This document shows positions 5,052 through 45,387 of a stretch of 46,992 bases of DNA, piece after piece; position 1 is the first letter of the stretch, and each line of letters begins with the position of its first letter. Under the pieces are notes generated by a model. The model made no database searches, had not been told where the DNA came from, and saw only the letters and a program-made list of their open reading frames with translations. Both the position numbers and the translations under genes were made by a program. The stretch comes from Streptacidiphilus anmyonensis. GTDB lineage: Bacteria; Actinomycetota; Actinomycetes; Streptomycetales; Streptomycetaceae. The stretch is taken from NCBI RefSeq assembly GCF_000787855.1, contig NZ_BBPQ01000066.1, positions 1-46,992 on the forward strand, in the 5' to 3' direction.

Positions 5052-5065
5052 GGGCCGAAGGGCTC
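5052..5065. promoter_or_regulatory. DosR-like box, one mismatch
   Basis: GGGCCGAAGGGCTC fits the recurrent GGGNC-N4-GNCCC pattern with one mismatch. It lies 37 bases before the ABC ATPase start and 18 bases from a perfect box, so the two could form a tandem site. Confidence 0.3.
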
Positions 5066-5083
5066 CGCGTCGGGGGCCAACGG

Positions 5084-5097
5084 GCCCACCGTGGGGA
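5084..5097. promoter_or_regulatory. DosR-like box, perfect half-sites
   Basis: GGGCCAACGGGCCC, a 14-bp inverted repeat with GGGCC/GGCCC halves and a 4-bp centre, lies 69 bases upstream of the ABC ATPase start. It matches boxes before the stress genes elsewhere in this window. A role as an operator is inferred from recurrence and spacing. Confidence 0.45.
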
Positions 5098-5328
5098 ACC
5101 GATCGGAGCAGCTGTGCCCCGCCAGGTGACCACTCCAGGGAGGTCAAATCTCCCCATCAACGCGTCGGCACGCGCTGCATGGTGGTGTGATCAGTGCGGC
5201 CACAAGGCGTTCTTGAGGACCTTCGGCGCTGCCACTGGGACGAGGCGGCCCACGTGACATCCCGTACAGGACAGCAGGCTGAAGACGGGGGCGGACATGT
5301 CAACACACCGCAGAAGGAGCTGAGGGCG

Positions 5329-6058
5329 ATGGTGGACCATGTCCCCGCCTGGCCACCTGGACCGGTACGCGTGGAAGCACGGTTGGACGCACCGTTGTCG
5401 GTGTCTGTGGCTGGTGAAATGGCTGCTCGCGATCCCCCACTACATCGTGCTGGCCTTCTTGTGGATCGCCTTCTGCGTGGTCACTGTGGTCGCCTTCTGC
5501 GCGATCCTGTTCACCGAGCGGTACCCGCGGGACCTGTTCGATTTCAACCTGGGTGTGCTGCGCTGGAGCTGGCACGTCGCCTACTACGCCTACGGCGCCC
5601 TGGGCACTGACCGGTACCCGCCTTCAGCCTGAAGGAGGAGCCGGACTACGCGGCGAGGCTCGACGTCGACTATCCGGAGCACCTCTCCAGGAAGCTGGTG
5701 CTGGTCAAGTGGTGGCTGCTGGCCCTCCCGCAGTACCTGGTCGTTGGGCATCCTGATGGGCAACAGCGAAAGCTCCTGGCTCTCCGCTGGGCTCGTGGGC
5801 CTGCTCGTCCTCTTCGCGGCCATCACCCGCGCCTTCACCGCCGAATATCCAGCTGGGATCTTCGACTTCGTCATCGGTCTGGACCGCTGGACCCTGCGCG
5901 TCGTCGCCTACGCGGCGCTGATGACGGACGCGTACCCGCCGTTCCGGCTCGACCAGGGCGGTACCGAACCCCGCACGGCCGCCACCGGTCCCCAGCCCGA
6001 CGGCCCGCCTGCCACCGTCGGCCTGTACAACCACCATGAGGAAGGGGGCCGACGATGA
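5329..6058 (+). pseudogene. Frameshifted DUF4389 membrane protein
   Basis: ATG at 5329 has AAGGAG ten bases upstream and opens [20 protein letters not shown]. The same protein continues in other frames as [19 protein letters not shown], then ARLDVDYPEHLSRKLVLVKW, then LVGLLVLFAAITRAFTAEYP. Frameshifts therefore fall near 5400, 5628 and 5745. DUF4389 proteins have two copies of a unit with [11 protein letters not shown] and a GLFDF-like segment, and both are visible here ([26 protein letters not shown]). Function of the family is unknown. The stop codon overlaps the ATG of a flavodoxin fragment by four bases, indicating a former operon. Confidence 0.75.
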
Positions 6059-6117
6059 ATCACGTCGCGATCGCCCACGGGAGCCTGTTCGGCAACACCC
6101 GCCAGATCGCCGAGGCG
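6055..6117 (+). pseudogene. N-terminal fragment of a flavodoxin
   Basis: ATG at 6055 overlaps the preceding stop (ATGA) and reads MNHVAIAHGSLFGNTRQIAE. This is a flavodoxin FMN-phosphate loop segment, where S/T-x-x-G-N-T binds the FMN phosphate. Homology ends after about 21 codons, where the text becomes unrelated. The rest of the gene, about 130 residues, is missing. A second, longer flavodoxin-like gene lies at 8896-9406. Confidence 0.6.
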
Positions 6118-6562
6118 AACCGGGAGCGAGCGTCGGCGTCCCACCGTACGGGCAGCCGGCATCAGGTCGTGTCCAGCAGTACCGTGTGCGTGCTTGTCCC
6201 TTAGCCGGGATGGTCCGCCGTCAGCCGTGGAGCCCGAGGCCGTGTCTTCGTCCCTCCATCGCGCTTGCTCCGACTGGCGTAGCGCTCTCCGAGGAGTCGG
6301 GACGACAGGCCGAACAGCCCACCACACGGGGCATCGGGGCTCGGCACCCGGCCCTCAGGGCCGGCGCTCATACGATCGGGGGAAATCGGAGCCGCGCAGA
6401 ACGTCTGGCCCGGCAAGGTCGAATAAGCTGGCAATGAAATCGACCTGGTGGCTTCGCGCCGCTCCAGGATCAGTGAAAAACATTCAGCTTTCGTTTCGGC
6501 GTCGCCCCCGATGCGTCCCGTGCGCTGTGCTCGCCCACCGGTTCGCCGAAAGAAGGTGAAAC
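6118..6562. other. Non-coding stretch before the cytochrome b-like module
   Basis: No recognisable gene. It contains a 17-base palindrome (6348-6364), and a Shine-Dalgarno sequence GAAGGTG at its end serves the gene at 6563. A promoter for the 6563-8668 genes must lie here. Confidence 0.4.
6348..6364. repeat. Perfect 8+1+8 palindrome
   Basis: CCGGCCCT-C-AGGGCCGG lies 199 bases before the first gene of the cytochrome b-like module. It may be an operator or simply GC-rich chance symmetry. It does not fit the GGGNC-N4-GNCCC box. Confidence 0.3.
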
Positions 6563-7514: not shown

Positions 7515-7525
7515 GAGAGGCGACG

Positions 7526-12533: not shown

Positions 12534-12868
12534 CCTCGTACCGGTCGGTCGCGCGACCGGGGCGGTACATCGCGCGCACCCACAACCAGCCACTCGTCAC
12601 CCGTGAAAGCGAAGAAGGTGCGTGCGTCGTTCCCGTCCGGCGCCGACGATTCCGGGTGCTCGGGCCCGCCGGCGAGCGCTTCGGACCCCTATGACGCTCC
12701 GCCGCGCTGACCGGCGCCGCCGTGCCACCGCTGACCGGCCCCGCCCGCTGAGGGCCTGTCGGCTCTGGGAGGCTCCGGAGCGAATCCGCTAACGCTCACG
12801 GTCGATCCGATGCGGCACCTGGTCCGGGCTGCGCAGGACATGCCGCCGACGCTCGAGGTCTGACGGGA
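12534..12868. other. Intergenic
   Basis: No convincing gene. A plus-strand string MRHLVRAAQDMPPTLEV ends at 12859, but it has no upstream context and may be chance. Confidence 0.35.

Positions 12869-15100: not shown

Positions 15101-15104
<4 letters not shown>
14290..15104 (-). pseudogene. Pyruvate dehydrogenase E1 alpha-beta deletion chimera
   Basis: The ATG at 15104 overlaps the upstream stop by four bases. The first 60 residues match an E1 alpha N-terminus ([20 protein letters not shown]). The frame then passes without a break into the middle of an E1 beta subunit: [71 protein letters not shown] and [20 protein letters not shown]. Most of E1 alpha, including its thiamine-diphosphate site, and the first part of E1 beta are missing. 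The E1 beta C-terminus is replaced by unrelated text after ITERA. A catalytic product is not possible. Confidence 0.75.
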
Positions 15105-16899: not shown

Positions 16900-17352
16900 G
16901 ACGGCTCCTCGCTCGGCCCCGCCCGGCCCGTCCCCCAGAGGCGGCATGCAGACCAGCGGCTTCGGAGACGTGGCGGTCGCCAGGACCGTCGCGGGCGCGT
17001 GCGCCCGGCCTCGGCGGTTGCGGAGCAGCTCTCGATCTGGGACACGGCGCGCCTCCTGCCAACCGCACACTCTTCGTCGGAACCAGCCTCCCGCCCTCAG
17101 CCTGGCATCCGAAGGGGGACGCCGCAGTTCTACTCCGGAGGGCGTCAACTCCGGCTTGTCCCCGTGACGGATCACGCCAACCATGCCGTTCAGGGGCCCT
17201 GCCTGCGGAAAGGCTTCTGCGGGAACTGCAGGCAGGCACGACCGGCGGGGGACCTCCGGCGGCTCCGCTCGGCCCGACCGGCCCTGTCGGCTGCGGGTAC
17301 GACGGCGCGAGGTTGGACTGGAATAGGACCCTCGCCGCCCAGGAGGCGGACC
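16900..17352. other. Divergent intergenic region
   Basis: Lies between the leftward acetyl-CoA synthetase gene and the rightward HTH-PPOX gene. No gene recognised. Contains a one-mismatch dormancy-type box at 17271-17284 and an AGGAGG ribosome site at 17341-17346. Confidence 0.4.
17271..17284. promoter_or_regulatory. DosR-like box, one mismatch
   Basis: GGCCCGACCGGCCC lies 69 bases before the HTH-PPOX start at 17353, the same distance as the perfect box before the ABC transporter. It has one mismatch in the first half-site. Confidence 0.35.
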
Positions 17353-20920: not shown

Positions 20921-21052
20921 CTCGATCTCCCTTCCCGAACGGAAGCCTCCTGCCCCCGCGCCGAGTCGCTCTCGCGCTGGGAACCGGTCATCCGACTCCA
21001 GCGTCGGCCCCAGGACGTATGTGACGCATTGGCCGGGCGGGCCACAACGGAG

Positions 21053-21066
21053 GGGCCGATGGTCCC
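21053..21066. promoter_or_regulatory. DosR-like box, perfect half-sites
   Basis: GGGCCGATGGTCCC. The right half GTCCC is the complement of GGGAC, the half-site of the mycobacterial DosR box. It lies 133 bases before the CBS-BON start at 20920. Confidence 0.5.
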
Positions 21067-21080
21067 GCTCGAGCTAGGAG

Positions 21081-21401: not shown

Positions 21402-21596
21402 GATGGTCCTCGCAGTGGCACCGGCGGTTCCGTCCCCCTCGTGCTGTCCACGTTCACCCCGCCGGCAGCCTTTCACAACGGCCGATCGGCCTGCGGCGCG
21501 GCGCCGCCCGGTCCGGTCCGTGCCCGTGGGGGACACGAACGAGGTCACGCCCGCCCGCCGTGCCGCCCCGGCCGGTGGGTCCTATGCTGCGGCCGT

Positions 21597-23499: not shown

Positions 23500-23577
23500 C
23501 GTCCCGTCCTTTCCGACGGCCGTCGCTCCGGCGTCCCGTCTCCCTTGCAGCTTCGGGCACCGTCCGGGCGGAAGACA

Positions 23578-23591
23578 GGGCCGACCGACCC
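23578..23591. promoter_or_regulatory. DosR-like box, perfect half-sites
   Basis: GGGCCGACCGACCC lies 79 bases before the universal stress gene start at 23499, in the gap after the DUF1876 gene. Confidence 0.45.
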
Positions 23592-23617
23592 GACTCCCGC
23601 TTCTCCCGTCGCAACGT

Positions 23618-24854: not shown

Positions 24855-24929
24855 GACTGCCTCCTTCGTCAGGACGCTCACATGCTCTCGCCCTGTGTCC
24901 AGTGCGCCACGGAGGGCCGGACCCGGGAA

Positions 24930-24943
24930 GGGCCGGACGTCCC
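24930..24943. promoter_or_regulatory. DosR-like box, perfect half-sites
   Basis: GGGCCGGACGTCCC lies 76 bases before the universal stress start at 24854, in the divergent promoter region with the hydrogenase operon. Confidence 0.5.
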
Positions 24944-25000
24944 TGTGGGCTGTGCCGAGTGTCCCGGGCACCGGCATGTGCCTCCCGGGCCCCGCGACAG

Positions 25001-25014
25001 GGCCCGTTCGGCCC
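25001..25014. promoter_or_regulatory. DosR-like box, one mismatch
   Basis: GGCCCGTTCGGCCC lies 104 bases before the CBS-BON start at 25118. The flanking G makes a 15-base version GGGCC-N5-GGCCC. It is the only such site found in front of the hydrogenase operon. Confidence 0.4.
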
Positions 25015-25117
25015 ATCACACGACATCCGGTGCGGGCGCACCGTGGAACCAGGGGCCGCAGCGCCCGACCGACACGCCCCGCGCCGTCCGGACGCGTCCC
25101 GCAAACAGGAGCACCCG

Positions 25118-25831
25118 ATGGAGCACCGCACCGTCGGCGACGTGATGACCCACCACGTCGCCACCGTCCGCCGTGACACCTCCTACAAGGCCCTCGCGGC
25201 GCTGCTGGCCGAGCACGACGTGAGCGCCGTGCCGGTCGTCGACGACGCCCACCGGGTCCTCGGCGTCGTCTCCGAGGGAGACCTGCTCCGCAAGGAGTCC
25301 GGTCAACCCGACCCCGAAGGGCACACGCCATCGGTGTGGATGAGCCCGAGCAACCGGAAGCGGGTGCGCGCCGAGGACGCCTCGGGGCTGATGTCCCGCA
25401 CCGTGTTCACGGCCCGGCCGCAGTGGTCCGTGGTGGAGGCCGCCCGCATGATGGACCGCCACCACGTCAAGCGGCTGCCCGTCGTCGACGAGACGGACCG
25501 CCTCGTCGGCATCGTCAGCCGGAGCGACCTGCTGCGCGTCTTCCTCCGCGCCGACCGGGCCATCCGCGAGGAAGTGGTCCGCGACGTGCTGCGACGCACC
25601 CTGCTGATCGACCCGGCCACCCTCTGGGTCGACGTCGAGGACGGCGTGGTCACGTTGCGCGGTCAGCTGGAGCGCAAGAGCATGATCCCGATCGTGGAGC
25701 GGCTGTGCCGGTCCGTGGACGGCGTCGTCGCCGTGCATGCCGGACTCACGTTCGCCTTCGACGACACCCGCACGGACCTCGAACCCCCGGCGGTCCGCCC
25801 CGTGACGCAGCCGCGTCACGTCCACCGCTGA
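25118..25831 (+). CDS. CBS-CBS-BON protein leading the hydrogenase operon
   Basis: 237 residues from the ATG at 25118, with CAGGAG upstream. CBS 1: GDVMTHHVATVRRDTSYKAL and GVVSEGDLLRKESG. CBS 2: LMSRTVFTARPQWSVVEAAR and GIVSRSDLLRVFLRAD. BON-like C-terminus: DPATLWVDVEDGVVTLRGQL. Paralogue of the gene at 20246-20920. It ends 27 bases before the ATG of the hydrogenase iron-sulfur subunit, with no terminator between, so the two are probably co-transcribed. A nucleotide-sensing partner for the hydrogenase or its operon is a testable idea, not established. Confidence 0.87.
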   Translation: MEHRTVGDVMTHHVATVRRDTSYKALAALLAEHDVSAVPVVDDAHRVLGVVSEGDLLRKESGQPDPEGHTPSVWMSPSNRKRVRAEDASGLMSRTVFTARPQWSVVEAARMMDRHHVKRLPVVDETDRLVGIVSRSDLLRVFLRADRAIREEVVRDVLRRTLLIDPATLWVDVEDGVVTLRGQLERKSMIPIVERLCRSVDGVVAVHAGLTFAFDDTRTDLEPPAVRPVTQPRHVHR

Positions 25832-25858
25832 ACGGCGGCCCCAGGAGGTGTGAACCCC

Positions 25859-27058
25859 ATGGCACCGGACACCGGCACGGCGAAGACACCTCCCGCGAAC
25901 GACGCGGACGCCCGCGAGCTCGCCCAGGAGGACCTGCAGGCCCTGTTCGACGCCCTGACCGCGCGGGGCTGGACGGTCGTCGGCCCCACCGAGCGCGACG
26001 GCGCGGTGGTCCTCGCCGAACTGGCCTCAGCCGACAAGCTCCCCTACGGCGTGGGCGTCGCGCTCGCCCCGGGCGGGTACCGCGTGCGGCGACGCGAGGA
26101 CCGGGCGGCGTTCGCCCATTCGGCCGGTCCCCAGTCGTGGAAGACCTTTCTGCACCCGGAGCGGGCCAGGCTGTGGCAGGCGGACCGCGACGGGGACGGG
26201 ACGGTGACGTTCACCCCCGACGCCGAGGAGAAGTCCCCCGTCCCGCGCTACGCGCTGCTCGGCGTGCATCCGTGCGATCTGGCCGCGATCGCCCGGCTGG
26301 ACCGGGTCCTCACCGGTGGGGCCTTCCGCGACCCGGTCTACACACCGCGCCGGGAGGCGGCGTTCGTCATCGCCGTCGCCTGCGGCGAACCAGGCGAACT
26401 GTGCTTCTGCGCCTCCGTCGGCACCGGCCCCGGCCTGCGCGACGACGCGCCCTGCGATCTGGCGGTCCACGAGATCGCCGGCGACGACGACGTGCGGCTG
26501 CTGATCTCCGCTCACAGCGCCCGCGGCGCGGAGGTGCTCGCCGACCCGCGGCTGCCCGTGCGCGATCCGGATCCGCAGCTTCCTGAGCTGGCCCGGTGTC
26601 AGACCGAGGCTGCCGAACGGCGGATGGGGCGCGAGCTGGAGGCCGAGGGACTGCGTGATGTGCTGGCGGAGACGCTCGACTCGCCGGTCTGGGACGAGGT
26701 CGCCTCCCGCTGTCTGACCTGCGGGAACTGTACGATGGTGTGCCCGACCTGTTTCTGCACCACCACCGAGGACACCACCGATCTGACGGGAGATCACGCG
26801 GAGCGGTGGCGGCGCTGGGACTCCTGTTTCGACCTCGACTTCTCCTACGTCCACGGAGGCTCCGTCCGGACCTCCGGGAGGAGCCGCTACCGCCAGTGGC
26901 TCACCCACAAGCTCGGCACCTGGCACGACCAGTTCGGCAGCAGCGGCTGTGTGGGCTGCGGCCGGTGCATCGTCTGGTGCCCCGTCGGCATCGACCTGAC
27001 CGTCGAGGCCGCCCGCCTGCGCGAGGAGGCCGGAGCATCCGAGGAGGGCACAGCATGA
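25859..27058 (+). CDS. [NiFe] hydrogenase iron-sulfur (beta) subunit
   Basis: 399 residues. The ATG at 25859 lies ten bases after AGGAGG; a GTG at 25850 is too close to it. The C-terminal third holds two 4Fe-4S motifs: CLTCGNCTMVCPTC near residue 285 and CVGCGRCIVWCPVG near 363. The long N-terminal part (FDALTARGWTVVGPTERDGA, RYALLGVHPCDLAAIARLDR) is that of the HydB/HyhB subunit of group 3b sulfhydrogenase-type enzymes. It should relay electrons between the hydrogenase module and the flavoprotein subunit. It overlaps the next gene by four bases. Cytoplasmic: no signal peptide. Confidence 0.9.
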   Translation: MAPDTGTAKTPPANDADARELAQEDLQALFDALTARGWTVVGPTERDGAVVLAELASADKLPYGVGVALAPGGYRVRRREDRAAFAHSAGPQSWKTFLHPERARLWQADRDGDGTVTFTPDAEEKSPVPRYALLGVHPCDLAAIARLDRVLTGGAFRDPVYTPRREAAFVIAVACGEPGELCFCASVGTGPGLRDDAPCDLAVHEIAGDDDVRLLISAHSARGAEVLADPRLPVRDPDPQLPELARCQTEAAERRMGRELEAEGLRDVLAETLDSPVWDEVASRCLTCGNCTMVCPTCFCTTTEDTTDLTGDHAERWRRWDSCFDLDFSYVHGGSVRTSGRSRYRQWLTHKLGTWHDQFGSSGCVGCGRCIVWCPVGIDLTVEAARLREEAGASEEGTA

Positions 27059-27945
27059 CCGACACCGTCGCCGTCGCGGACGGCGCCCCCGACGTCGTCA
27101 CGCCTCTGCCCTACCGGGTCCGCCACCGGCTGCGGGAGACCGCCGACACGGTCACTCTCGACCTCGTCCCGGTGGGCACGGCGCTGCCCCGCTACCGCCC
27201 CGGCCAGTTCTCGATGCTCTACGCCTTCGGGGTCGGAGAGATCCCCGTGTCCGTCAGCGCCGTCGCATCCGGCGGTGACGCCATCGCCCACACGATCCGC
27301 GCCGTGGGCAAGGCCAGCGAGGCACTGTGCCGGCTGCGGCCGGGCGAGGTGGTCGGCGTGTGCGGCCCGTTCGGCAACGACTGGGCCCTCGGCATCCGGC
27401 CGGCCGGAGCGGACGATCCGGTCACCCCCTTGGGCACGGCCCCGGGCGAGGACCTGATCGTCATGGGCGGCGGTCTCGGGCTCTCCCCCCTGCGTCCCGT
27501 CGTCCTGCATGCGCTGTCCCGACCCGGGTTCTACGGGTGGCTGACCGTCCTGGCCGGCGCCCGCACTCCGCACGAGCTGGTCCACCGCGCGGACCTGATG
27601 CAGTGGCACGCACTCGGCGAGGCGAAGATCACCGTGGACCGCGCCGAAGCCGGCTGGACCGGCCCGGTCGGACTGGTCACCGATCTCCTGCGGCACGCGG
27701 TCTTCCGCCCCGAGCGCACCACCGCGTTCGTCTGCGGCCCGGAACCGATGATGCGGGCGAGCGCCGAGGCGCTGATGGACCGCGGCGTCGCCCCCGACCG
27801 GATCCGCCTCTCGCTGGAGCGCAACATGCGCTGCGCCACCGCCTGGTGCGGCCACTGCCAGCTCGGTCGGGTCCTGGTCTGCCGCGACGGACCGATCTTC
27901 ACCTGGGACCAGGCCGCCGCCCTGCTCGCCGTCCACGAGCTGTGA
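27055..27945 (+). CDS. Hydrogenase NAD(P)H-binding flavoprotein (gamma) subunit
   Basis: 296 residues of the ferredoxin-NADP reductase-like family. The FAD site [20 protein letters not shown] is followed by the pyridine-nucleotide loop [19 protein letters not shown] and the C-terminal CGPEPMM. It ends in a 2Fe-2S ligand set, [19 protein letters not shown], near residues 257-275. In group 3b hydrogenases this HydG/HyhG subunit exchanges electrons with NADPH or NADH. The start overlaps the previous stop (ATGA). Which nucleotide is used cannot be told securely. Confidence 0.9.
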
Positions 27946-27961
27946 CCGGAGGTCCGCCCTG

Positions 27962-28774
27962 ATGTCCTGCGCGCCCCGGCCCAAGCTCGCCGTGTGGAAG
28001 TTCTCCTCCTGCGACGGCTGTCAGCTGACCCTGCTCGACTGCGAGGAGGACCTGCTCCCCCTGGCCGATCGGGTCGAGATCGCCTACTTCCTGGAGGCGT
28101 CCCGGGCCACCAGCCCCGACCCCTACGACCTCTCACTCGTCGAGGGGTCCATCGCCACGAAGGACGACATCGACCGCATCCGCGAGATCCGGGCGCAGTC
28201 ACGCGTCCTGGTGACCATCGGCGCCTGCGCGACGGCGGGCGGCATCCAGGCGCTGCGCAACGCGCGCGACTTCGAGCAGCTGCGCTCGGTGGTGTACGCA
28301 CAACCGGAGTACATCGACGAGCTGGCGACCTCGACGCCGATCGCGGACCACGTCCGGGTCGACTTCGAACTGCGCGGCTGCCCGATCGACAAGCGCCAGC
28401 TGCTGGAGGTGATCACCGCCTTCCTCGCCGGCCGCAAGCCCGACATCCCGGACCACAGCGTCTGCTTCGAATGCAAGCGACGCGGCGTCACCTGCGTGAC
28501 CGTCGCCCACGGCACGCCCTGCCTCGGTCCGGTCACCCAGGCCGGCTGCGGGGCGCTCTGCCCGGCCTTCGGGCGCGGCTGCTTCGGCTGCTTCGGCCCC
28601 AAGGCCGATCCCAACACCCGCGCACTGCTGCCGCTGCTGCGTACGGACGGCCTCGCCGACCAGGACGTGGCCCGGCTCTACCGGACCTACAACGCGGAGG
28701 CCCCGGCCTTCCGCGAAGCCGCACGCGAAGCGACCGACACCGTCAAGGAAACAGCCGAGGAGACCCGTCGATGA
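27962..28774 (+). CDS. [NiFe] hydrogenase small (delta) subunit
   Basis: 270 residues. Proximal 4Fe-4S ligands are in [12 protein letters not shown] (Cys17, Cys20), with [10 protein letters not shown] and [10 protein letters not shown]. Further cysteines in [32 protein letters not shown] and FGCFGP provide medial and distal clusters. No twin-arginine signal peptide, so it is cytoplasmic, as in group 3. ATG at 27962 with GGAGG upstream. It overlaps the large-subunit gene by four bases. It passes electrons from the nickel-iron site to the beta/gamma subunits. Confidence 0.92.
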
Positions 28775-30087
28775 CCCACCGCAGCCACCGTCTGCTCAGC
28801 GTCTCCTCCCTCGCCCGGGTCGAGGGCGAGGGAGCGATGCAGGTCCACGTGGTCGACGGTGAGGTGGAGAGCGTCCGGCTCAGCATCTACGAGCCACCGC
28901 GCTTCTTCGAGGCGCTGCTGCGCGGCCGCCGCTACGACGAACCGGTGGACATCACCTCGAGAATCTGCGGAATCTGCCCCGTCGCCTACCAGATGACGGC
29001 CTGCCAGGCGGTCGAGGACGCCTGCGGCGTCACCGTCGACGGACAACTCGCCGCGCTGCGGCGGCTGCTCTACTGCGGCGAGTGGATCGAGAGCCACTCC
29101 CTGCACATCTACCTGCTGCACGCCCCCGACTTTCTCGGCCTGCCGGACGCACTCGCGCTCGCCCGCGCCGACCGCGCGCTGGTCGAACGCGGACTGCGGC
29201 TCAAGCAGGCGGGAAACCAGATCATGGAGGTGCTCGGCGGACGCGCCGTGCACCCCGTCAACGTCAGGCTCGGCGGCTTCCACCAGCTACCCGAGCGCGA
29301 GGAACTGGACCGGCTCACCGCGCTGCTGCGCACCGCCCGCCACGACGCCGAGGCCACCGTGGCCTGGGCCATCGCCCTGGACTTCCCCGAGCTGCACATC
29401 CGGCACGCCACGCTCGCCCTGCGTCCGACCGACTCCTACCCGCTGGATGCGGGAACCCCCACCCTGCACCACGCCTTCTCCGACGCCGCGCCCCCGACCG
29501 TGTTCCCCGTCGAGGAGTTCGAACAGCACGTGGTCGAGGCACAGGCACCGCACACCACCGCGCTGACGGCCACGGCCGACGGCCTCCGCTACCTCACCGG
29601 CCCGCTGGCCCGCTGGCGCACCGCCGCCGACCTCCTGCCGCCGGACCTTCGCGACCTGGGGTCGACGGCCGGCCTCGACACAGCCTGCGACAATCCCTTC
29701 CGCAGCATCGTGGTGCGGGCGATCGAGGTGCTCTGGGCCGTACGCGAGGCCCAGCGCCTCCTGGACGCCTACGAGCCGCCGCCTGCCCCCGCCGTCCCAG
29801 TGCCGCCTCGCGCCGGCGTGGGCCGGGCCGCGACCGAGGCGCCGCGCGGACTGCTCTACCACCGTTACGAACTCGCCGCGGACGGCACCGTCCTCGACGC
29901 GAACATCATCCCGCCCACCGCGCAGAACCAGTCCGCCATCGAGGCGGACCTGCGCGACTTCGTCCAACAACGGCTGCATCTGGACGACACGGAGCTCACC
30001 CGCCAGTGTGAACAGGCGATCCGCAACTACGACCCGTGCATCTCCTGCGCCACACACTTCCTTGACCTGACCGTCGAGAGGAGGTGA
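28771..30087 (+). CDS. [NiFe] hydrogenase large (catalytic, alpha) subunit
   Basis: 438 residues. Both nickel-binding pairs are present: [10 protein letters not shown] (Cys66, Cys69) and DPCISCATH (Cys423, Cys426). Nine residues after His429 form the C-terminal extension removed by a maturation endopeptidase. N-terminal [15 protein letters not shown] is typical. The order Fe-S subunit, flavoprotein, small, large is that of group 3b bifunctional NADP-linked hydrogenases (sulfhydrogenases). These are oxygen-tolerant to some degree and are hypoxia-induced in mycobacteria. All key residues are intact. Only one endopeptidase and a HypC-like gene follow; hypA, B, D, E and F are not in the window. 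Confidence 0.93.
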
Positions 30088-30094
30088 CGGGCCC

Positions 30095-30574
30095 GTGGGC
30101 GGCACCGTCGTGATCGCCATCGGCAACGAGTACCGCCAGGACGACGGTGCGGCGCCCGCCGCGCTGCGTCTTCTGCACGACACGTGCGCGCCCGCCGATC
30201 GCTTCGCCCACACCGATGGCGAGGCGAGCCGACTGCTGAGGCTCTGGCAGGGGCGCAATCTGGCCGTGGTCGTCGACGCCGTCCACGCCCATCCGGGCTG
30301 CCCCGGCCGCATCCACCGCCTCGATCTCGCCGGCACCGCGCTGCTGCGCGGCGGCGCGAACACCCATGGGCTGGGCCTCGGCGAGGCCGTGGAACTCGGC
30401 CGGATACTGGACCTGCTGCCGGACCGACTGGTGGTTCTCGGGATCGAGGGCGAGCACTTCGGCTGGGGCGACGGGCTCTCCCCGGCCGTGGCCGAGGCGG
30501 TTCCGAAGGCAGCCTCGCTGGTGCACGACCTGCTCGTGGAAGCGGCTTCGGGTCAGTTGCGGAGACCGGTATGA
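30095..30574 (+). CDS. Hydrogenase maturation endopeptidase (HycI/HybD family)
   Basis: 159 residues from the GTG at 30095, behind GAGGAGG. The family opening IAIGNEYRQDDGAAPAALR places a nickel-sensing glutamate at residue 12. VVVDAVHAHPGCPGRIHRL follows, then THGLGLGEAVELGRIL (His of the metal site) and VLGIEGEHFGWGDGLSPAVA. It cleaves the nine-residue tail of the large subunit after nickel insertion. It overlaps the HypC-like gene by four bases. Its usual acidic metal-binding positions appear conserved. Confidence 0.88.
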   Translation: MGGTVVIAIGNEYRQDDGAAPAALRLLHDTCAPADRFAHTDGEASRLLRLWQGRNLAVVVDAVHAHPGCPGRIHRLDLAGTALLRGGANTHGLGLGEAVELGRILDLLPDRLVVLGIEGEHFGWGDGLSPAVAEAVPKAASLVHDLLVEAASGQLRRPV

Positions 30575-34445: not shown

Positions 34446-34598
34446 CACCGCCCCACGTGATCATGTTACGAGCTCTACAGGTACCCAGGGCCGGTCGGCG
34501 TTGGAGCCGAGGACGTTTGGCCCACGCGGAGTATCTCGGCCGGGAAGCAGTGTGGACGGAGAGCCAGCAGGTTCGTCGTTGCGAGGCAGGTGACCGTC
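34446..34598. other. Spacer
   Basis: Transposon flank and presumed promoter of the small gene at 34599. GGGCCGGTCGGCGT near 34490 fits the dormancy box with two mismatches and is not called. Confidence 0.3.
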
Positions 34599-37216: not shown

Positions 37217-37378
37217 GCCCTCATGCAACGGCCGCAGCGGACCCACGGTCACCCGGGGCGTCCCCCGGGAGGTAGCCGGGTAGTCAGAGGGCCGCGGCAA
37301 GAGCTGGTGAGGTCACGCGTCGCGCTGCGCGAGCTGCTTGGCGGACCTCATGCGCGGTGCCGACCGGGCACGTTCCGG

Positions 37379-37392
37379 GGGACCAACGGCCC
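37379..37392. promoter_or_regulatory. DosR-like box, perfect half-sites
   Basis: GGGACCAACGGCCC. The left half GGGAC is identical to the mycobacterial DosR half-site. It lies 77 bases before a 31-codon ORF (37469) and 227 bases before the universal stress gene (37619). Confidence 0.5.
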
Positions 37393-37468
37393 AGGCGCAC
37401 ACGTGCCGACTCGGGGAGGGTGGATACCGGAACAAGCGCGGGCACCAGAGAGTCCGGAGGTGGCGACA

Positions 37469-38546: not shown

Positions 38547-38548
38547 TC

Positions 38549-39298: not shown

Positions 39299-39574
39299 AC
39301 ACCGACGCTATCCCGGCTCACCCGTGGTCGCAGCGCAGACACCGGGCGAGCAAGCCCACGCCGTTCGGACCTGCCCGGGCACGCCCGAGTCGAAGGCAGC
39401 CGAGGGAACCGGCGTCCGGCTGCGCCGGACGCCGACCTGGGCGTCGGCCGATCCCGACGTCCTCGCAGGGCCGGGGGAACCCTGCGCTTCCCATACTCCC
39501 TACCGGGCCGCGCATGGCACTTGGGCCTGCGGGCCCCGCTGGGCGGCCGGAAGGCTCTTCTCAACCCGCGGGCT
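39299..39574. other. Intergenic with hairpin
   Basis: Holds the 10-bp hairpin at 39411-39433 and otherwise no recognised feature. Confidence 0.4.
39411..39433 (-). terminator. Perfect 10-bp hairpin after ppsA
   Basis: GGCGTCCGGC, loop TGC, GCCGGACGCC. It lies 142 bases downstream of the ppsA stop in its direction of transcription and 113 bases before the next leftward gene. No T tract, as is common in actinobacterial terminators. Confidence 0.5.
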
Positions 39575-41950
39575 TCAGCTGAGTTCCTGTTCGGCGGCGG
39601 CCACGTTCTGCTTGACGACCACGAAGCTGTCGGGCGCGACCGAGATCGAGTCGATGCCCGCCTGAACCAGGAACCGGGCGAACTGCGGGTCGTCACTGGG
39701 TCGTTGCCCGCACAGGCCGACCGGCACCCCGGCGGCGTGAGCGGCGGCGATCAGCGCTTCGATACTGCGGGTCACCGCATGGTTGCGTTCGTCGAACAGC
39801 TCGGCCAGGGCGCTGGAGTCGCGGTCGACGCCGAGGGTGAGCTGGGTGAGGTCGTTGCTGCCGATGGAGAAGCCGTCGAAGCGCTCCGCGAACTGTTCGG
39901 CCAGGATGATGTTGGACGGGATCTCCGCCATGACGTAGACCTTGAGGCCGTTCGCTCCTCGTGCCAGGCCGTTGTCGGCCATCACGGCGAGCACGCGGTC
40001 CGCTTCCTCGGGGGTGCGGCAGAAGGGGATCATCATGACGACGTTGGTGAGGCCCATGTCCTCACGCACACGTCGCAGGGCCTGACACTCCAGGGCGAAG
40101 GCCTCGCGGTAACCGGGGCTGTAGTATCGGCTGGCCCCGCGCCAGCCGATCATCGGGTTGGCCTCCTCGGGTTCGAAGGGGCGTCCGCCGAGCAGGCGTG
40201 CGTACTCGTTGGTCTTGAAGTCGCTGGCCCGCACCACGACCGGGTCGGGCCAGCGGGAGGCGGCGATGCGCGCGACGCCGTGCGCGACGCGGTCGGTGAA
40301 GTACGCGCGCCGGTCGGCGTAGCCGTCGGTGAGTTCGTCGACGAGGCGGCGGTCCTCGGGGTCGAGCCGCTCGGGGTGGAGCAGGGCCATGGGGTGGATC
40401 CGCACGTCGTGGGTGACCATGAACTCCATCCGGGCGAGCCCCACACCGTCGGCCGGAAGCCGCCACCAGCGGAAGGCACCCGCGGGAGCCGCCAGGTTGA
40501 GCATCACCTTGGTGCGGGTGTGCGGCAGCCCTTTGACGTCGACCTCGCTCTCCTCGAAGTCGAGCCGACCGTCGTAGACGTGGCCGGTCTCGCCCTCGGC
40601 GCAGGAGACCGTGACCTCCCGGCCTCCCGCCAGCCGTGTCGTGGCGTCGCCGGCGCCGACGACGGCCGGCACTCCGAGCTCACGGCTGACGATGGCGGCG
40701 TGCGAGGTGCGTCCCCCATGGTCGGTCACGATCGCGGCGGCCCGCTTCATGATCGGTTCCCAGTCCGGGTCAGTGATCCGCGTGACCAACACTCCACCCT
40801 GCGGGAACCGCTCCAGGTGCTCGGGGCTCTCCATCGGGCACACCACACCGGCGCCGATCCCGTCGCCGACCGCCAGGCCGTCCACGAGCGTCTCCCCTCG
40901 CCCGGTGAGCCGGTAGGTCCGCAGCACGGATCCGCGCCGACGCGACTGCACGGTCTCCGGGCGGGCCTGCACCACGAAGATCTCCCCGGAGCGGCCGTCC
41001 TTCGCCCACTCGATGTCCATGGGAACGCCGTAGTGCTGCTCCACGGCGACCGCCCACCTGGCCAGCGTCAACACCTCGGCGTCTTCCAGCACCCGGGCGC
41101 GCCGCTCCTTCTCGGCGGTGTCCATCGTGTCCGTGCCCTGTTCCCCGGCGTAGACGGCCTTGCAGCGCTTCGCGCCGATGCCGACGTGGATCACCGGATC
41201 CCGCCCCGGCTCCTCCAGCAGCGGCTTGAAGACCAGGTACTCGTCCGGGTCCACCTGCCCGCTGACCACGGTCTCGCCCAACCCCCAGGCGGCGTTGACC
41301 ACCACGACACGCGGAAAGCCGCTCTCGGTGTCGAGCGTGAACATCACCCCGGCCCCTCCGAGGTCCGCCCGGACCATGCGCTGGACCCCGATCGACAACG
41401 CCACGGCGGACTGGTCGAACCCCATCCGTTCGCGGTAGTCGATCGCCCGGTCCGTGAACAGCGACGCGTAGCATCGGCGGCAGGCGTCCAGCAGCTCCTG
41501 CTCGCCGCGCACGTTGAGGAACGACTCCTGCTGTCCGGCGAAGCTCGCGTCGGGCAGGTCCTCCGCGGTGGCGCTGCTGCGCACCGCGACCTCCGGGTCG
41601 TCCCGTCCGGTACGACGGCTGAGCTCGCGGTAGGCCGCCACCAGTTCGCCGCTCAGACACTCCGGCAGCGCCGTCCGCAGGACGGCGGAGCGGATCGCTT
41701 CGCCAGCGTCCCGCAGGTCCGCGCCGGCCCGGAGGCGGTCGACCTGCTCGCTCACCACGCCCTCCAGCCCGCTCTCCCTGAGGTGCTCGCGGTAGGCGGC
41801 GGCCGTGGTGGCGAAGCCCTCGGGCACGCGAACCCCGGCGGGACCCAGATGGCGGATCAGCTCGCCCAGGGAGGAGTTCTTGCCCCCGACCACGGCCACG
41901 TCGCCACGGCCCAGCTCGTCGAACCAGATCACGCGAGCGTTCTCCGTCAT
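39575..41950 (-). CDS. ppsA: Phosphoenolpyruvate synthase
   Basis: 791 residues, the usual length. The ATG at 41950 follows GGGAGG and gives MTENARVIWFDELGRGDVAV. Pyruvate-phosphate dikinase ATP-binding domain: GGKNSSLGELIRHL, VAVRSSATAEDLPDASFAGQ and IFVVQARPETVQS. The phosphohistidine domain, with GGRTSHAAIVSRELGVPAVV, places the catalytic histidine near residue 415. The C-terminal TIM barrel has IGWRGASRYYSPGYREAFAL, FSIGSNDLTQLTLGVDRD and VGLCGQRPSDDPQFARFLV. It converts pyruvate and ATP to phosphoenolpyruvate, AMP and phosphate for gluconeogenesis. A perfect dormancy-type box lies 96 bases upstream. Confidence 0.93.
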   Translation of the reverse strand: MTENARVIWFDELGRGDVAVVGGKNSSLGELIRHLGPAGVRVPEGFATTAAAYREHLRESGLEGVVSEQVDRLRAGADLRDAGEAIRSAVLRTALPECLSGELVAAYRELSRRTGRDDPEVAVRSSATAEDLPDASFAGQQESFLNVRGEQELLDACRRCYASLFTDRAIDYRERMGFDQSAVALSIGVQRMVRADLGGAGVMFTLDTESGFPRVVVVNAAWGLGETVVSGQVDPDEYLVFKPLLEEPGRDPVIHVGIGAKRCKAVYAGEQGTDTMDTAEKERRARVLEDAEVLTLARWAVAVEQHYGVPMDIEWAKDGRSGEIFVVQARPETVQSRRRGSVLRTYRLTGRGETLVDGLAVGDGIGAGVVCPMESPEHLERFPQGGVLVTRITDPDWEPIMKRAAAIVTDHGGRTSHAAIVSRELGVPAVVGAGDATTRLAGGREVTVSCAEGETGHVYDGRLDFEESEVDVKGLPHTRTKVMLNLAAPAGAFRWWRLPADGVGLARMEFMVTHDVRIHPMALLHPERLDPEDRRLVDELTDGYADRRAYFTDRVAHGVARIAASRWPDPVVVRASDFKTNEYARLLGGRPFEPEEANPMIGWRGASRYYSPGYREAFALECQALRRVREDMGLTNVVMMIPFCRTPEEADRVLAVMADNGLARGANGLKVYVMAEIPSNIILAEQFAERFDGFSIGSNDLTQLTLGVDRDSSALAELFDERNHAVTRSIEALIAAAHAAGVPVGLCGQRPSDDPQFARFLVQAGIDSISVAPDSFVVVKQNVAAAEQELS

Positions 41951-42045
41951 GGCTGCCTCCCGGTCAGCGGCGCGGGTGGGGTGGTCGATCGCCTGCTGGA
42001 GCCCTCTACCCATACACCGTGCGGCCCCAGGTGACCGCTGCGCAT

Positions 42046-42059
42046 GGGCCGTTCGGCCC
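42046..42059. promoter_or_regulatory. DosR-like box, perfect palindrome halves
   Basis: GGGCCGTTCGGCCC lies 96 bases before the ppsA start. Its right half is also the left arm of a separate 11-bp hairpin (42055-42080). Confidence 0.5.
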
Positions 42060-42080
42060 ACGGCTCGCCAGCCGTGGGCC
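42055..42080. repeat. Perfect 11-bp hairpin overlapping the box
   Basis: GGCCCACGGCT, loop CGCC, AGCCGTGGGCC. It shares GGCCC with the dormancy-type box and could terminate the leftward universal stress transcript (stop at 42308) or affect the ppsA promoter. Confidence 0.5.
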
Positions 42081-42307: not shown

Positions 42308-43204
42308 TCAGCCGTGCGGGACGACCGCGACGGGCCCCAGCGCGTGGTGCAGCACCGAGTGAGCGGTCGAACCCAGTCCGGCCGTGCCCGGTCCCGCCGA
42401 CCCGCCCGTCCCCGAGCGGCGGCCCAGGACGAGGAGGGCCGCGTCCTGCGCCTCCTCGACCAGCAGCGCAGCCGGATGCCCCACCCTCACCAGCCTGAGA
42501 ATGCCACCCCCCTCCCCCAGCCGCGCTGCCTCGAGCGCCCGGAACAAAGCCTTCTCCTCCCGGTCCGCGAGCTCGATCCGCCGCTTCTCACCGCGCCCGT
42601 GCCGCGCCGGACGCCACGCAGGGGGCCACGCGGCGACCGCGAAGGCGTGCAGAGCCGTACCGCGGTCATGCGCGGCTCTGAGCGCGAACTCCAGCACGGC
42701 GGCCGGTTCCGGGTCCCGGGTGTCGACGCCGACCACGACAGGAGGCGGCTCGTCCGGCTCGATACCGGCGTCCACGTGCCGGGAGGCAAGACCCTCAGGC
42801 CGGACCACGACAACCGGCCGGGTCGCTTCGCCAGCCACCCCCCGGCTGGTCGATCCCAGCATCAGGCCCCGGAAACCTCCCAAGCCCCTCGACCCCACAA
42901 CCAGGAGCTCGGCGTCGTCCTGCGCGGCCAGCAGCGCCCCGACGGGCCAATCCGCAACCGTCTCGAAGCTGACCTCCACCTCCGGGAAGCGGTCGGATTC
43001 CTCCGCCGCCATCGACGCCAGCACCGCCCGGGCCCGCGCCTCGGTGTCGGCGTAGTCCTCGCCGGACTCCGGCATCCGCCCCAGGTGATAACAGGCCGCC
43101 AGCAACAGCAATCCGGTGCCCCGACGCGCGGCCTCCGCCGCACCCCAATGCGCCGCCGCCACACTGTGCACCGAACCGTCCACCCCGACGACCACGGCAG
43201 TCAT
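42308..43204 (-). CDS. Universal stress protein, two UspA domains
   Basis: 298 residues from the ATG at 43204, with AAGGAG about nine bases upstream. Domain 1: AVVVGVDGSVHSVAAAHWGA, with intact ATP loop GSRGLGGFRGLMLGS. Domain 2: PVVVGVDTRDPEPAAVLEFA, ending GRRSGTGGSAGPGTAGLGS, an expanded and probably altered loop. Domain 1 should bind ATP. A perfect dormancy-type box lies 128 bases upstream, shared with the divergent protease gene. Confidence 0.9.
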   Translation of the reverse strand: MTAVVVGVDGSVHSVAAAHWGAAEAARRGTGLLLLAACYHLGRMPESGEDYADTEARARAVLASMAAEESDRFPEVEVSFETVADWPVGALLAAQDDAELLVVGSRGLGGFRGLMLGSTSRGVAGEATRPVVVVRPEGLASRHVDAGIEPDEPPPVVVGVDTRDPEPAAVLEFALRAAHDRGTALHAFAVAAWPPAWRPARHGRGEKRRIELADREEKALFRALEAARLGEGGGILRLVRVGHPAALLVEEAQDAALLVLGRRSGTGGSAGPGTAGLGSTAHSVLHHALGPVAVVPHG

Positions 43205-43331
43205 GACCGCTCAACTCCTTGGAGATCCACCTGAGGAGTCCGCTCCGGGTTCGCGCGACGACGGCCCGAAACGGGAGTTTGAATGTGCAAGCTCTGTTCC
43301 CATGCTGATCGGGTGACCGCGCGGATGGAAT

Positions 43332-43345
43332 GGGCCGACCGGCCC
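43332..43345. promoter_or_regulatory. DosR-like box between divergent genes
   Basis: GGGCCGACCGGCCC lies 128 bases before the universal stress start (43204) and 116 bases before the protease start (43461), near the centre of their shared upstream region. One site could serve both. Confidence 0.5.
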
Positions 43346-43460
43346 CCGCATCACGACCCGGAAGGACGGCGCTGCGGGCGGATCGGCCCTGCCGCTCGGC
43401 CACGGGCGCGACGGAACCTGGAATCACGTCAGTCATGGGGTTCCGAAGGACGGTGCCGTG

Positions 43461-44651
43461 ATGTCGGAGTTCAGGAGCCCGACCCAGGGCCGTGGCGGAG
43501 AGCGCGGACCGTTCCGCTCGGTGGTGCCCTTCGGGCGCGTCTTCGGCGTCCCTTTGCGTCTTCACTGGAGCGCGCCTCTGCTGGTCGTCGTGTTGGGGCT
43601 CAGTCTGGGCGCGGGTACGCTGCCGGGCTGGGCACCGGGTCGTTCCCACGCCACCTACACGCTGGCTGGCATCGCCGGAGCGCTGCTGCTCTTGGCGAGC
43701 CTGCTGTTGCACGAGGGAGCGCACGCCGTCGTCGCCCGGCGCGCCGGGGTCGAAGTACAGGACATGACAGTCTGGGCGCTGGGCGGCGCTACGCTGATGG
43801 GCCGTGCCGACCGGCCTCGCGCGGCCTTCAAGATCGCCTTCGCTGGCCCGTTGACCAGCCTGCTGCTCGGCGGACTCGGTCTGGGGGCAGCTGTGGGTCT
43901 GCTGCGCGGTGCGCACTGGACCGTTCCCGGCGACGTCCTGCTCCGGTGCGGCTGGGCCAACCTGCTGCTCGCCGGGTTCAACCTGCTCCCCGCGGCGCCG
44001 CTGGACGGCGGCCGCGTGCTGCAGGCAGCAGTGTGGTGGCGCACCGGCGACCGGTCCCGCGCCGAGCGGGCCGCCGGGCGGGCCGGACAGCTTGCCGGAG
44101 CGCTCCTCATCGGCATCGGTGTCCTCGTCCTGCTGCGCGGCGGCCTGGCAGGTCTGTGGCTCATGCTGCTCGGCTTCTTCATCACCGCCACAGCGTGGGC
44201 CGAGGCGCAGCAGGCCACGGTCCGGACCCTGCTGCACGGGGTGCGGCTGTCCCAGGTGATGTCCTCGCCCGTCGCCACCGGACCCGACTGGCTGACCGTG
44301 GACCGCTTCCTCGAGGACGTGGCCCTGACCAGTCACCACACCCATCTCCCGGTCCTCGGCCTCGAGGGACGCCCGACCGGTGTCGTCTCAGTGCGCCGAC
44401 TGGCCCAGGCCCCGTCGGCGGCCCGGTCTGTCACCCGGGTCTCCCAGGTGGCACAGCCGATCGAGCACACACCGCTCGCAGGCCCGGAGGAGGACCTGGC
44501 GGACGTGCTGCAACGCCTGACGCCGGGTATGCCGATGCGGATCCTGGTCATGGACGGCGGGCGACTCGTCGGCATCGTCACCGCGCACGACGTCTCGCGT
44601 CTCCTCCAGCAGCGCCTGACGGTCACCGGCCGCGGCTCCGGCGCGTTCTGA
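43461..44651 (+). CDS. Rip3-like site-2 protease with CBS pair
   Basis: 396 residues. The ATG at 43461 is preferred over the adjacent GTG. Five or six membrane helices enclose the M50 zinc site HEGAH (His83, Glu84, His87) and the third ligand in LLPAAPLDGGRVL (Asp near 181). A CBS pair fills residues 255-390 (LSQVMSSPVATGPDWLTVDR, GVVSVRRLAQAP, GIVTAHDVSRLL). It matches mycobacterial Rip3 (Rv2625c), a DosR-regulon intramembrane protease. The substrate is unknown; anti-sigma factors or membrane regulators are typical for the class. All catalytic residues are present. Confidence 0.9.
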   Translation: MSEFRSPTQGRGGERGPFRSVVPFGRVFGVPLRLHWSAPLLVVVLGLSLGAGTLPGWAPGRSHATYTLAGIAGALLLLASLLLHEGAHAVVARRAGVEVQDMTVWALGGATLMGRADRPRAAFKIAFAGPLTSLLLGGLGLGAAVGLLRGAHWTVPGDVLLRCGWANLLLAGFNLLPAAPLDGGRVLQAAVWWRTGDRSRAERAAGRAGQLAGALLIGIGVLVLLRGGLAGLWLMLLGFFITATAWAEAQQATVRTLLHGVRLSQVMSSPVATGPDWLTVDRFLEDVALTSHHTHLPVLGLEGRPTGVVSVRRLAQAPSAARSVTRVSQVAQPIEHTPLAGPEEDLADVLQRLTPGMPMRILVMDGGRLVGIVTAHDVSRLLQQRLTVTGRGSGAF

Positions 44652-44694
44652 CTCCGTTACGGCCATCTGTTACCGCCGGTCTCGGGGCGACCGG

Positions 44695-45290
44695 TCATGC
44701 GGGCTCACCTCCGGTCGACGACGAGTCGCCCTCGGCGCGCGACAGCCGCCGTCCCCAATTCGGCGCAGGCGGCGGTGAACCGTTCGAAATCCACTCCCGT
44801 TCCTCCCCGTCGGCAAGCCGGGTGCGGCAGTCCTCGATAACGAGCGGCAGCGCCTCCAGCCGGACCGGCGTCGCCGGAGCGCGGCCGCAGCTGGGAGGCC
44901 CGTCGAAGTTCACCAGGACCAGCAGGCCGAGGTCGTTGCGCAGCTCCGGGTGGACCGCGCAGTCGTCCACGAACTCGCCCATGTCGTAGAAGATCCGGTC
45001 GGCGACGCCGTGGAAGACCTGCGCCGAGCGACCTGCGACCAGCGTGACCCCGCAGGTCAGCAACTGCTGTGCGGTCGCGCGCACATAAGCGGGCGGTCGG
45101 GCGGTCAGGTTCGGCCCCAGTGCCCCGTCACCGGCCCCGCGTCCGCCGCCCGTATGGCTTCGGCGACCAGCGGGCGCAGCCAATCGGGGACCCCCGACGC
45201 GAGGTCGGCCCAGGCGACGCCGGGTTGGTCCGCACGGGAGGCCCACGCGGGCGGGTGGTCGGTCAGGCATCCGACCCGGCCGGTTCCACG
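44695..45290 (-). pseudogene. Frameshifted hypothetical protein
   Basis: Upstream frame: DHPPAWASRADQPGVAWADL, ASGVPDWLRPLVAEAIRAAD and AGPVTGHWGR. After a shift near 45112: PPAYVRATAQQLLTCGVTLV, then VFHGVADRIFYDMGEFVDDC, RNDLGLLVLVNFDGPPSCGR and a tail ending at 44695. The reconstructed protein of about 200 residues has strong codon bias throughout, so it was a real gene recently. No domain recognised. The start is unclear; an ATG at 45271 is one base out of frame. Confidence 0.5.
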
Positions 45291-45352
45291 CGAGTCCCGC
45301 GACCGAGGTGCCGCTGTCCGAGCAGCCGGCTGCCGAAGCCGGATGCAGCGGA

Positions 45353-45366
45353 GGACCTACGGTCCC
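45353..45366. promoter_or_regulatory. DosR-like box, one mismatch (tandem, distal)
   Basis: GGACCTACGGTCCC. GGACC-TAC-GGTCC within it is a perfect 5+3+5 inverted repeat. With the site at 45374 it forms a tandem pair, 21 bases apart, upstream of the gene at 45503. Confidence 0.35.
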
Positions 45367-45373
45367 TGCAGAC

Positions 45374-45387
45374 GGGACCGGTCGCCC
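45374..45387. promoter_or_regulatory. DosR-like box, one mismatch (tandem, proximal)
   Basis: GGGACCGGTCGCCC lies 116 bases before the UspA-like start at 45503. Two DosR sites separated by about two helical turns are common in mycobacterial hypoxic promoters. Confidence 0.35.

What the first reader, a model, noticed from the sequence alone, without database searches (positions are those of the whole stretch)
5052..45387. A DosR-box-like 14-bp inverted repeat recurs before stress genes
Seven sites fit GGG(A/C)C-N4-G(N)CCC exactly: 5084, 21053, 23578, 24930, 37379, 42046 and 43332. Five more have one mismatch: 5052, 17271, 25001, 45353 and 45374. They precede the ABC exporter, both CBS-BON operons, all five universal stress genes, an HTH-PPOX gene, ppsA and the Rip3-like protease, mostly 69-133 bases from the start codon. 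The core of the mycobacterial DosR box is GGGAC-N4-GTCCC, so a DevR/OsdR-type regulator is the natural candidate. Caution: eight fixed G/C positions at about 70% GC would be met roughly ten times by chance in 47 kb, and I did not scan coding regions exhaustively. The evidence is placement, not count.
Basis: partly seen in the sequence, partly recalled or inferred. Interest (0 to 1): 0.75.

Follow-up and report, generated by a model that had tools for sequence, protein, structure and literature searches.

The report
OsdR dormancy boxes before stress genes
A recurring DNA palindrome in this soil actinomycete matches the published binding site of OsdR, the Streptomyces counterpart of the tuberculosis dormancy regulator, and probably switches on a set of low-oxygen and stress genes, here including a hydrogen-metabolising enzyme.

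Summary
All 12 listed sites exist (5084 is really 5074). A matrix built only from published (mostly predicted) S. coelicolor OsdR sites finds 13 sites of >=10 bits in the window against 2.3 expected from 1.04 Mb of the same genome. In this genome's stress islands, boxes pair mostly at 22 bp (two helical turns), as cooperative DevR-type binding would need. The genome encodes three close OsdR proteins (88-90% identical to one another), each gene with its own box, a fourth at 69% without one, and OsdK-type kinases, all on other contigs. The boxes precede five universal stress genes, two CBS-BON genes, HTH-PPOX, ppsA, an M50 protease and an ABC exporter. One CBS-BON gene heads a group 3b-like [NiFe] hydrogenase operon. 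Strong boxes stand at hydrogenase operon heads in 19 of 55 Streptomycetaceae loci, against 4 of 486 control heads. This is a new member of a known kind (OsdR/DevR regulon); the hydrogenase target, the triplicated regulator and the phasing are the fresh points. No binding or expression was tested.

The parts
5051..5066 (.). OsdR-type box, 22 bp from the next one; before the ABC exporter (4110-5015, -)
   Evidence: matrix score 10.4; centre 43.5 bases from start
5073..5088 (.).
   Evidence: score 8.0
12751..12766 (.). OsdR-like site with no clear target gene (3' side of the phosphofructokinase gene)
   Evidence: score 10.7; possibly chance
17270..17285 (.). OsdR-type box before the HTH-PPOX gene (17353-18069, +)
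   Evidence: score 14.0; centre 75.5 bases from ATG 17353
21052..21067 (.). OsdR-type box before CBS-BON gene 1 (20246-20920, -)
   Evidence: score 12.5; 139.5 bases from ATG
21478..21493 (.).
   Evidence: score 12.0; outside the genes of the curated list
23577..23592 (.). OsdR-type box before universal stress gene 1 (22645-23499, -)
   Evidence: score 11.6; 85.5 bases from ATG
24929..24944 (.). strongest box; divergent region between universal stress gene 2 (23958-24854, -) and CBS-BON gene 2 / hydrogenase operon (+)
   Evidence: score 18.8; 82.5 bases from the USP2 start, 181.5 from the CBS-BON2 start
25000..25015 (.). proximal box of the CBS-BON2 / [NiFe] hydrogenase operon
   Evidence: score 13.0; aligned box in Streptacidiphilus pinicola scores 12.7
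34487..34502 (.).
   Evidence: score 12.8
34509..34524 (.). 22-bp partner of 34487
   Evidence: score 8.2
37378..37393 (.). OsdR-type box before universal stress gene 3 (37619-38497, +)
   Evidence: score 11.7; 233.5 bases from ATG, 83.5 from a short upstream ORF
42045..42060 (.). OsdR-type box before ppsA (39575-41950, -)
   Evidence: score 14.9; 102.5 bases from ATG 41950
43331..43346 (.). OsdR-type box between universal stress gene 4 (42308-43204, -) and the M50 protease gene (43461-44651, +)
   Evidence: score 15.6
   Evidence: score 15.2; 78.5 bases from the protease ATG
45352..45367 (.). box before universal stress gene 5 (45503-46072, +)
   Evidence: score 7.9
45374..45389 (.). 22-bp partner of 45352
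   Evidence: score 9.1
25118..25831 (+). CBS-BON protein 2, first gene of the putative operon
   Evidence: Pfam CBS x2 and BON
25850..30574 (+). group 3b-like [NiFe] hydrogenase: beta (Fe-S), gamma (NAD-binding), delta (small), alpha (large), maturation protease
   Evidence: Pfam; NCBIfam sulfhydrogenase-type models, under cut-off for the four subunits

Best explanation
The motif is the OsdR/DevR operator. Inferred mechanism: when oxygen falls (or NO rises), a GAF histidine kinase of the OsdK/DosT/DevS type, encoded on another contig, phosphorylates one or more of three close OsdR response regulators. OsdR~P binds the 16-bp palindromes upstream of the window's stress genes, often as two dimers 22 bp (two helical turns) apart on one DNA face. 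In relatives a -10-like element starts about 31 bp past the centre of the promoter-proximal box, which puts the box next to the -35 region, so bound OsdR would recruit RNA polymerase and activate the gene. The three close osdR copies carry the same box and so probably activate themselves. Targets here are universal stress proteins, CBS-BON proteins, an HTH-PPOX protein, ppsA, an M50 protease, an ABC exporter and a group 3b-like [NiFe] hydrogenase operon that could re-oxidise NAD(P)H by evolving H2 under hypoxia. Shown: motif, placement, enrichment, phasing and presence of the regulator genes. Inferred: binding, activation, signal and direction of the hydrogenase.
For: Matrix from 25 distinct published S. 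coelicolor sites (most are predictions, and by the passage on section 9 the predicted targets tested by gel shift were all bound), scanned here: 13 sites >=10 in the window against 52 in 1.04 Mb control (2.3 expected); >=12: 9 against 0.63 expected. 13 of 13 non-coding. 0 of 100 matrices with permuted half-site columns reach 13 (mean 2.1, max 9). Pairs 20-23 bp apart: 14 in the window plus own islands (11 at exactly 22) against 1.6 expected; control 0 against 0.32; 80 against 7.6 in 80 hydrogenase loci of other organisms. OsdR: best solved-structure match is DevR 3c3w, E 9e-79, with EKTVKN of the recognition helix and the phospho-acceptor region conserved. OsdK: GAF domain best matched by 2vzw (DosT by recall) and DevS entries, with the HPPM histidine aligned. 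Paralogues. GGGACCGTTCGGCCCT, score 16.2, upstream of all three close osdR copies. YANNNT at +31 from the box centre in 17 of 119 proximal promoters of the related loci, mean 0.86 per position. uspA, osdR and SCO0207 promoters are poorly or not expressed without osdR in S. coelicolor (PMC5069765). M. smegmatis Hyd3, same gene order, rises 7.6-67-fold at 0.6% oxygen (PMC2799521).
Against: No binding or expression data for this organism. Sites 12751 and 21478 have no evident target, and 34487 precedes only a small ORF without a Pfam match. The one-mismatch pattern is not enriched. The controls are uneven: 4 sites >=10 in the first 12 stretches, 48 in the later 40. The window contig carries no osdR or osdK hit. 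In the organism's own 23 proximal promoters YANNNT at +31 occurs only twice. With looser pairs (>=8 and >=4) the control also has 2 at 20-23 bp, at chance (2.08), against 17 in own islands (2.2). 36 of 55 Streptomycetaceae hydrogenase heads lack a box of 12 bits and 24 lack one of 8.
Confidence: 0.86

Rival explanations
1. The boxes are bound by a different NarL/LuxR-type regulator (for instance the 69% OsdR-like on C150) rather than by the three close OsdR copies.
For: A fourth OsdR-like protein with the same EKTVKN segment exists, and the genome has many NarL-type regulators. OsdK of S. coelicolor also partners SCO3818 (PMC5069765 discussion).
Against: The three close osdR genes carry the box; the C150 gene has none in the 400 bases before its start (best score -0.2). 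Other regulators are 45% identical or less, apart from two short partial matches at 46% and 53%.
Confidence: 0.06
2. The motif is a by-product of 70% GC DNA: generic G+C-rich palindromes, or terminator hairpins between genes.
For: Loose matches are as frequent as chance. One strict match, 39523, lies 3' of ppsA and scores under 6.5 with the matrix.
Against: Same-genome control, permuted matrices and 22-bp phasing; the sites with assigned genes lie upstream of start codons.
Confidence: 0.02
3. OsdR boxes are real but act as repressor or silent sites in this organism, so the genes are not hypoxia-induced.
For: In the S. coelicolor osdR mutant some genes go up as well as down (PMC5069765).
Against: uspA, osdR and SCO0207 promoters need OsdR; in relatives the box position relative to the -10-like element fits an activator.
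Confidence: 0.06

Closest known systems
OsdR regulon of Streptomyces coelicolor (Urem et al. 2016, PMC5069765)
   Same: Same 16-bp palindrome; universal stress and PPOX-type targets; a PEP/pyruvate enzyme (PPDK there, PEP synthase here); box upstream of osdR; clustered targets
   Different: Here three close OsdR copies; no nitrate reductase among the window ORFs scanned; targets include CBS-BON genes and a [NiFe] hydrogenase; osdRK not on this contig
DevR/DosR regulon of mycobacteria
   Same: Palindromic box; closely packed boxes with the proximal one overlapping -35 (PMC3029386 passages); universal stress targets; an Rv3131/Acg-family gene at the window's right end (198.4 bits, cut-off 199, cut by the contig end)
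   Different: Here most boxes have the GGGCC rather than the GGGAC half-site; the organism is a streptomycete
Hyd3/Hyh [NiFe] hydrogenase of M. smegmatis (MSMEG_3931-3927)
   Same: beta-gamma-delta-alpha-protease order and hypoxic induction (PMC2799521); Hyh described as dos-regulated (PMC8125079 passages; that Hyh is Hyd3 is recalled)
   Different: Here headed by a CBS-BON gene; no expression data; group 3b assignment not proved

Membership tests
OsdR/DevR regulon | 16-bp palindrome AGGGCCGATCGGCCCT in promoters | tested here: met
   13 sites >=10 bits, all non-coding
OsdR/DevR regulon | density above the same genome's background | tested here: met
   13 against 2.3 expected
OsdR/DevR regulon | an OsdR/DevR orthologue in the genome, recognition helix and phospho-acceptor region kept | tested here: met
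   which residues contact DNA is recalled
OsdR/DevR regulon | GAF kinase of DosT/DevS type | tested here: met
   by sequence only; heme binding and its ligand are recalled, not tested
OsdR/DevR regulon | box upstream of osdR itself | tested here: met
   three of the three close copies; the fourth, 69% copy has none
OsdR/DevR regulon | closely packed boxes on one face of the DNA | tested here: met
   14 pairs at 20-23 bp against 1.6 expected
OsdR/DevR regulon | proximal box next to the -35 element | tested here: inconclusive
   -10-like element at +31 in 17 of 119 promoters of relatives, in 2 of 23 own promoters
OsdR/DevR regulon | binding by OsdR~P; induction in hypoxia | not testable with these tools
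   needs bench work
group 3b [NiFe] hydrogenase | sulfhydrogenase-type alpha, beta, gamma and delta subunits | tested here: inconclusive
   best NCBIfam models are HydA, ShyB, a cytochrome-c3 hydrogenase gamma model (HydG/ShyC lower) and HydD, all under cut-off
group 3b [NiFe] hydrogenase | four subunits plus maturation protease in one operon | tested here: met
   Pfam; operon inferred from spacing and strand

The most novel reading that the evidence does not exclude
In Streptomycetaceae the OsdR dormancy switch drives fermentative H2 metabolism: a group 3b-like [NiFe] hydrogenase operon sits under OsdR boxes, in this strain governed by three close OsdR copies fed by two close kinases. This would give obligately aerobic filamentous actinomycetes a way to dispose of reductant when oxygen runs out.
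Probability: 0.5. Interest if true: 0.6.

Novelty: new member of a known kind. Interest (0 to 1): 0.45.

Why it matters
Streptomycetes carry many anaerobic genes yet cannot grow without oxygen, the 'anaerobic paradox' named in PMC5069765. OsdR boxes at the head of about a third of the streptomycete hydrogenase operons examined (19 of 55) give a concrete, testable route: OsdR-controlled H2 metabolism during hypoxic survival, parallel to Hyd3 of M. smegmatis. The 22-bp phasing may give a stricter rule for predicting OsdR targets than the single palindrome.

Tried and rejected
Counting the loose one-mismatch pattern: rejected as evidence, since it is at chance.

TANNNT as a -10 probe: almost absent in this GC-rich DNA; YANNNT was used instead and peaks only in the relatives' set.

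Mean matrix score by distance was dominated by self-overlap at 8-10 bp; counting pairs of peaks was used instead.

Boxes (>=12) around the hydrogenase gene in 55 Streptomycetaceae loci: the 500-bp bin just before the operon is the highest (18 sites in -3500..-3000), but bins further upstream are nearly as high (16 and 14). 23 loci have a site in -3600..-2000, against 22 in -8400..-6800. These loci are OsdR-rich islands throughout. The operon-head test against 486 heads of the window's own genome is therefore clearer but still mixes an island effect with a head effect. 5 of the 80 loci failed the head finder and were dropped, leaving 55 Streptomycetaceae and 20 others; the others give 4 of 20 at >=12. 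The loci share ancestry, so the counts are not independent trials.

The crude gene caller missed several Pfam-supported genes. The window's final coding count uses a hand-made list of Pfam-supported and caller genes; control counts use the caller alone.

Full report
Observation. The exact pattern is enriched in the window (20 strand-matches against 6.8 in shuffles; seven tighter palindromes against 1.2 expected from the genome-wide count of 235). The one-mismatch version is not (113 against 130). Genome-wide the tighter pattern is rarer than its reversed control (235 against 381), so the enrichment is local.

Independent test. The OsdR box is published: 5'-AGGGCCGATCGGCCCT, with a table of predicted sites of which some were tested by gel shift (PMC5069765, section 7 read in full; section 9 seen as a passage). 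The control is 52 stretches of 20 kb (1.04 Mb) from 12 of the larger contigs of the same genome, picked by position; one search had by then listed some strict-pattern places, and one stretch holds a universal stress gene. Against it the window has 13 sites >=10 bits where 2.3 are expected and 9 >=12 where 0.63 are expected. The control is uneven: 4 sites >=10 in the first 12 stretches and 48 in the later 40; single 20-kb stretches hold 0 to 5. None of the window's 13 lies in a coding sequence of the curated list, although 61% of the window is coding. In the control, sites >=10 run at 0.4 per 10 kb in coding and 0.98 in non-coding DNA; the window's non-coding DNA runs at 5.8 with the same automatic gene calls. 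Matrices with permuted half-site columns give 2.1 on average and at most 9 (n = 100).

Architecture. Pairs of sites stand 22 bp apart: 5051/5073, 34487/34509 and 45352/45374 in the window, and 43331/43375 at 44 bp. Weak 22-bp partners (score 0.4-3.6, chance level not computed) flank 17270, 21478, 24929 and 37378. Over the window and stretches of three other contigs that carry universal stress genes and osdR copies, 14 pairs fall at 20-23 bp, 11 of them at exactly 22, where 1.6 are expected from other distances; the control has none, against 0.32 expected. In 80 hydrogenase loci of other organisms it is 80 against 7.6, with peaks at 20 and 22. Closely packed sites, cooperative binding and overlap of the proximal site with -35 are described for M. 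tuberculosis DevR (PMC3029386, passages). In 119 proximal promoters of the related loci a YANNNT hexamer starts 31 bases past the box centre in 17, against a mean of 0.86 per position; in the organism's own 23 it does so in 2, so the -10 placement is an inference from relatives.

Regulator. The genome encodes OsdR at C129:63181-63900. Its best solved relative is DevR (3c3w, E 9e-79; VraR next at 7e-42), with the EKTVKN segment of the recognition helix identical. Two more copies lie on C147 and C127; the three are 88-90% identical to one another. A fourth is 69% (C150). Kinases with DosT/DevS-like GAF domains lie on C129 and C147 (85%) and, more distantly, on C150 (42%). Each of the three close osdR copies has GGGACCGTTCGGCCCT upstream (score 16.2); the C150 copy has no such box (best -0.2 in 400 bases). 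Of 14 genomes of the genus (own included), 13 have an OsdR-type match at E <= 1e-80, one to four per genome; counting only matches of 78% identity or more, this genome alone has three, two have two, eight have one and three have none. Two devR copies are described in M. smegmatis (PMC2799521 passages), so several copies are not unique. The window is the whole of contig C88 and has no osdR or osdK hit; the regulator would act in trans.

Targets. Downstream genes, with Pfam support: ABC exporter, HTH-PPOX, two CBS-BON genes, five universal stress proteins (the fifth weak, E 3e-6), ppsA (NCBIfam phosphoenolpyruvate synthase above cut-off) and an M50 protease with a CBS domain. The CBS-BON2 gene is followed by five genes of a [NiFe] hydrogenase in the order beta, gamma, delta, alpha, protease, the order of M. 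smegmatis Hyd3, whose genes rise 7.6-67-fold at 0.6% oxygen (PMC2799521, section 8 read). NCBIfam's closest models for the subunits are sulfhydrogenase-type or near kin but under cut-off, so I call it group 3b-like.

Conservation. In the aligned promoters of the two the proximal box is kept (score 12.7 in S. pinicola) with an ACCGTGGA stretch downstream, and the distal box too (11.7). At hydrogenase operon heads a box >=12 occurs in 19 of 55 Streptomycetaceae loci and 4 of 20 others, against 4 of 486 operon heads in control DNA of the window's own genome. Five loci could not be analysed, the loci are related by descent, and they lie in OsdR-rich surroundings, so this is support rather than proof; 36 of 55 fall below 12. 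In the genus, 3 of 14 genomes have this hydrogenase; in one it lies about 11 kb from an osdR copy.

What is known. OsdR binding of such boxes, and dependence of the uspA, osdR and SCO0207 promoters on OsdR, are shown in S. coelicolor (PMC5069765: abstract, sections 7, 10, 12 and 16 read, other passages seen). The dos regulon of M. smegmatis is described as including the hydrogenases Hhy and Hyh (PMC8125079 passages). A link between OsdR and a hydrogenase in Streptomyces was not found in the papers searched: 'Streptomyces + OsdR + hydrogenase' gave one paper, whose one mention is an aside on NuoF; 'Streptomyces + group 3b + hydrogenase' gave eight, seen as a listing only. That library holds only openly licensed PMC papers. 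I saw no statement of a 22-bp spacing rule in the passages read; two searches for one returned no paper, which in this library proves little.

Verdict. It is a known kind of system. The hydrogenase target, the triplicated OsdR and the 22-bp phasing are the parts worth following.

Noticed in passing
13932-15104 (-): ORF that by eye starts like a dehydrogenase E1 alpha subunit and continues as an E1 beta-type transketolase part (Pfam Transket_pyr, partial, and Transketolase_C): looks like a deletion fusion.
   Followed up: partly
[quoted passage not shown] likely split or frameshifted.
   Followed up: partly
9900-12019 (+): Two adjacent ORFs that look by eye like an IS21-type insertion element (istA/istB); not scanned.
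   Followed up: no
46333-46992 (+): Acg/Rv3131-type nitroreductase cut by the contig end; by eye a close relative sits next to osdR on contig C129.
   Followed up: partly
37469: Short ORF with a ribosome-binding-like site between the box at 37378 and USP3; possible leader peptide.
   Followed up: no
L042, L043, L045 (contigs C147, C127): Other OsdR-box islands: 8, 16 and 12 sites >=10 bits in 20, 19 and 20 kb.
   Followed up: partly
39523-39536: Strict palindrome GGGCCTGCGGGCCC 3' of ppsA that scores under 6.5 with the OsdR matrix; may be a hairpin.
   Followed up: no
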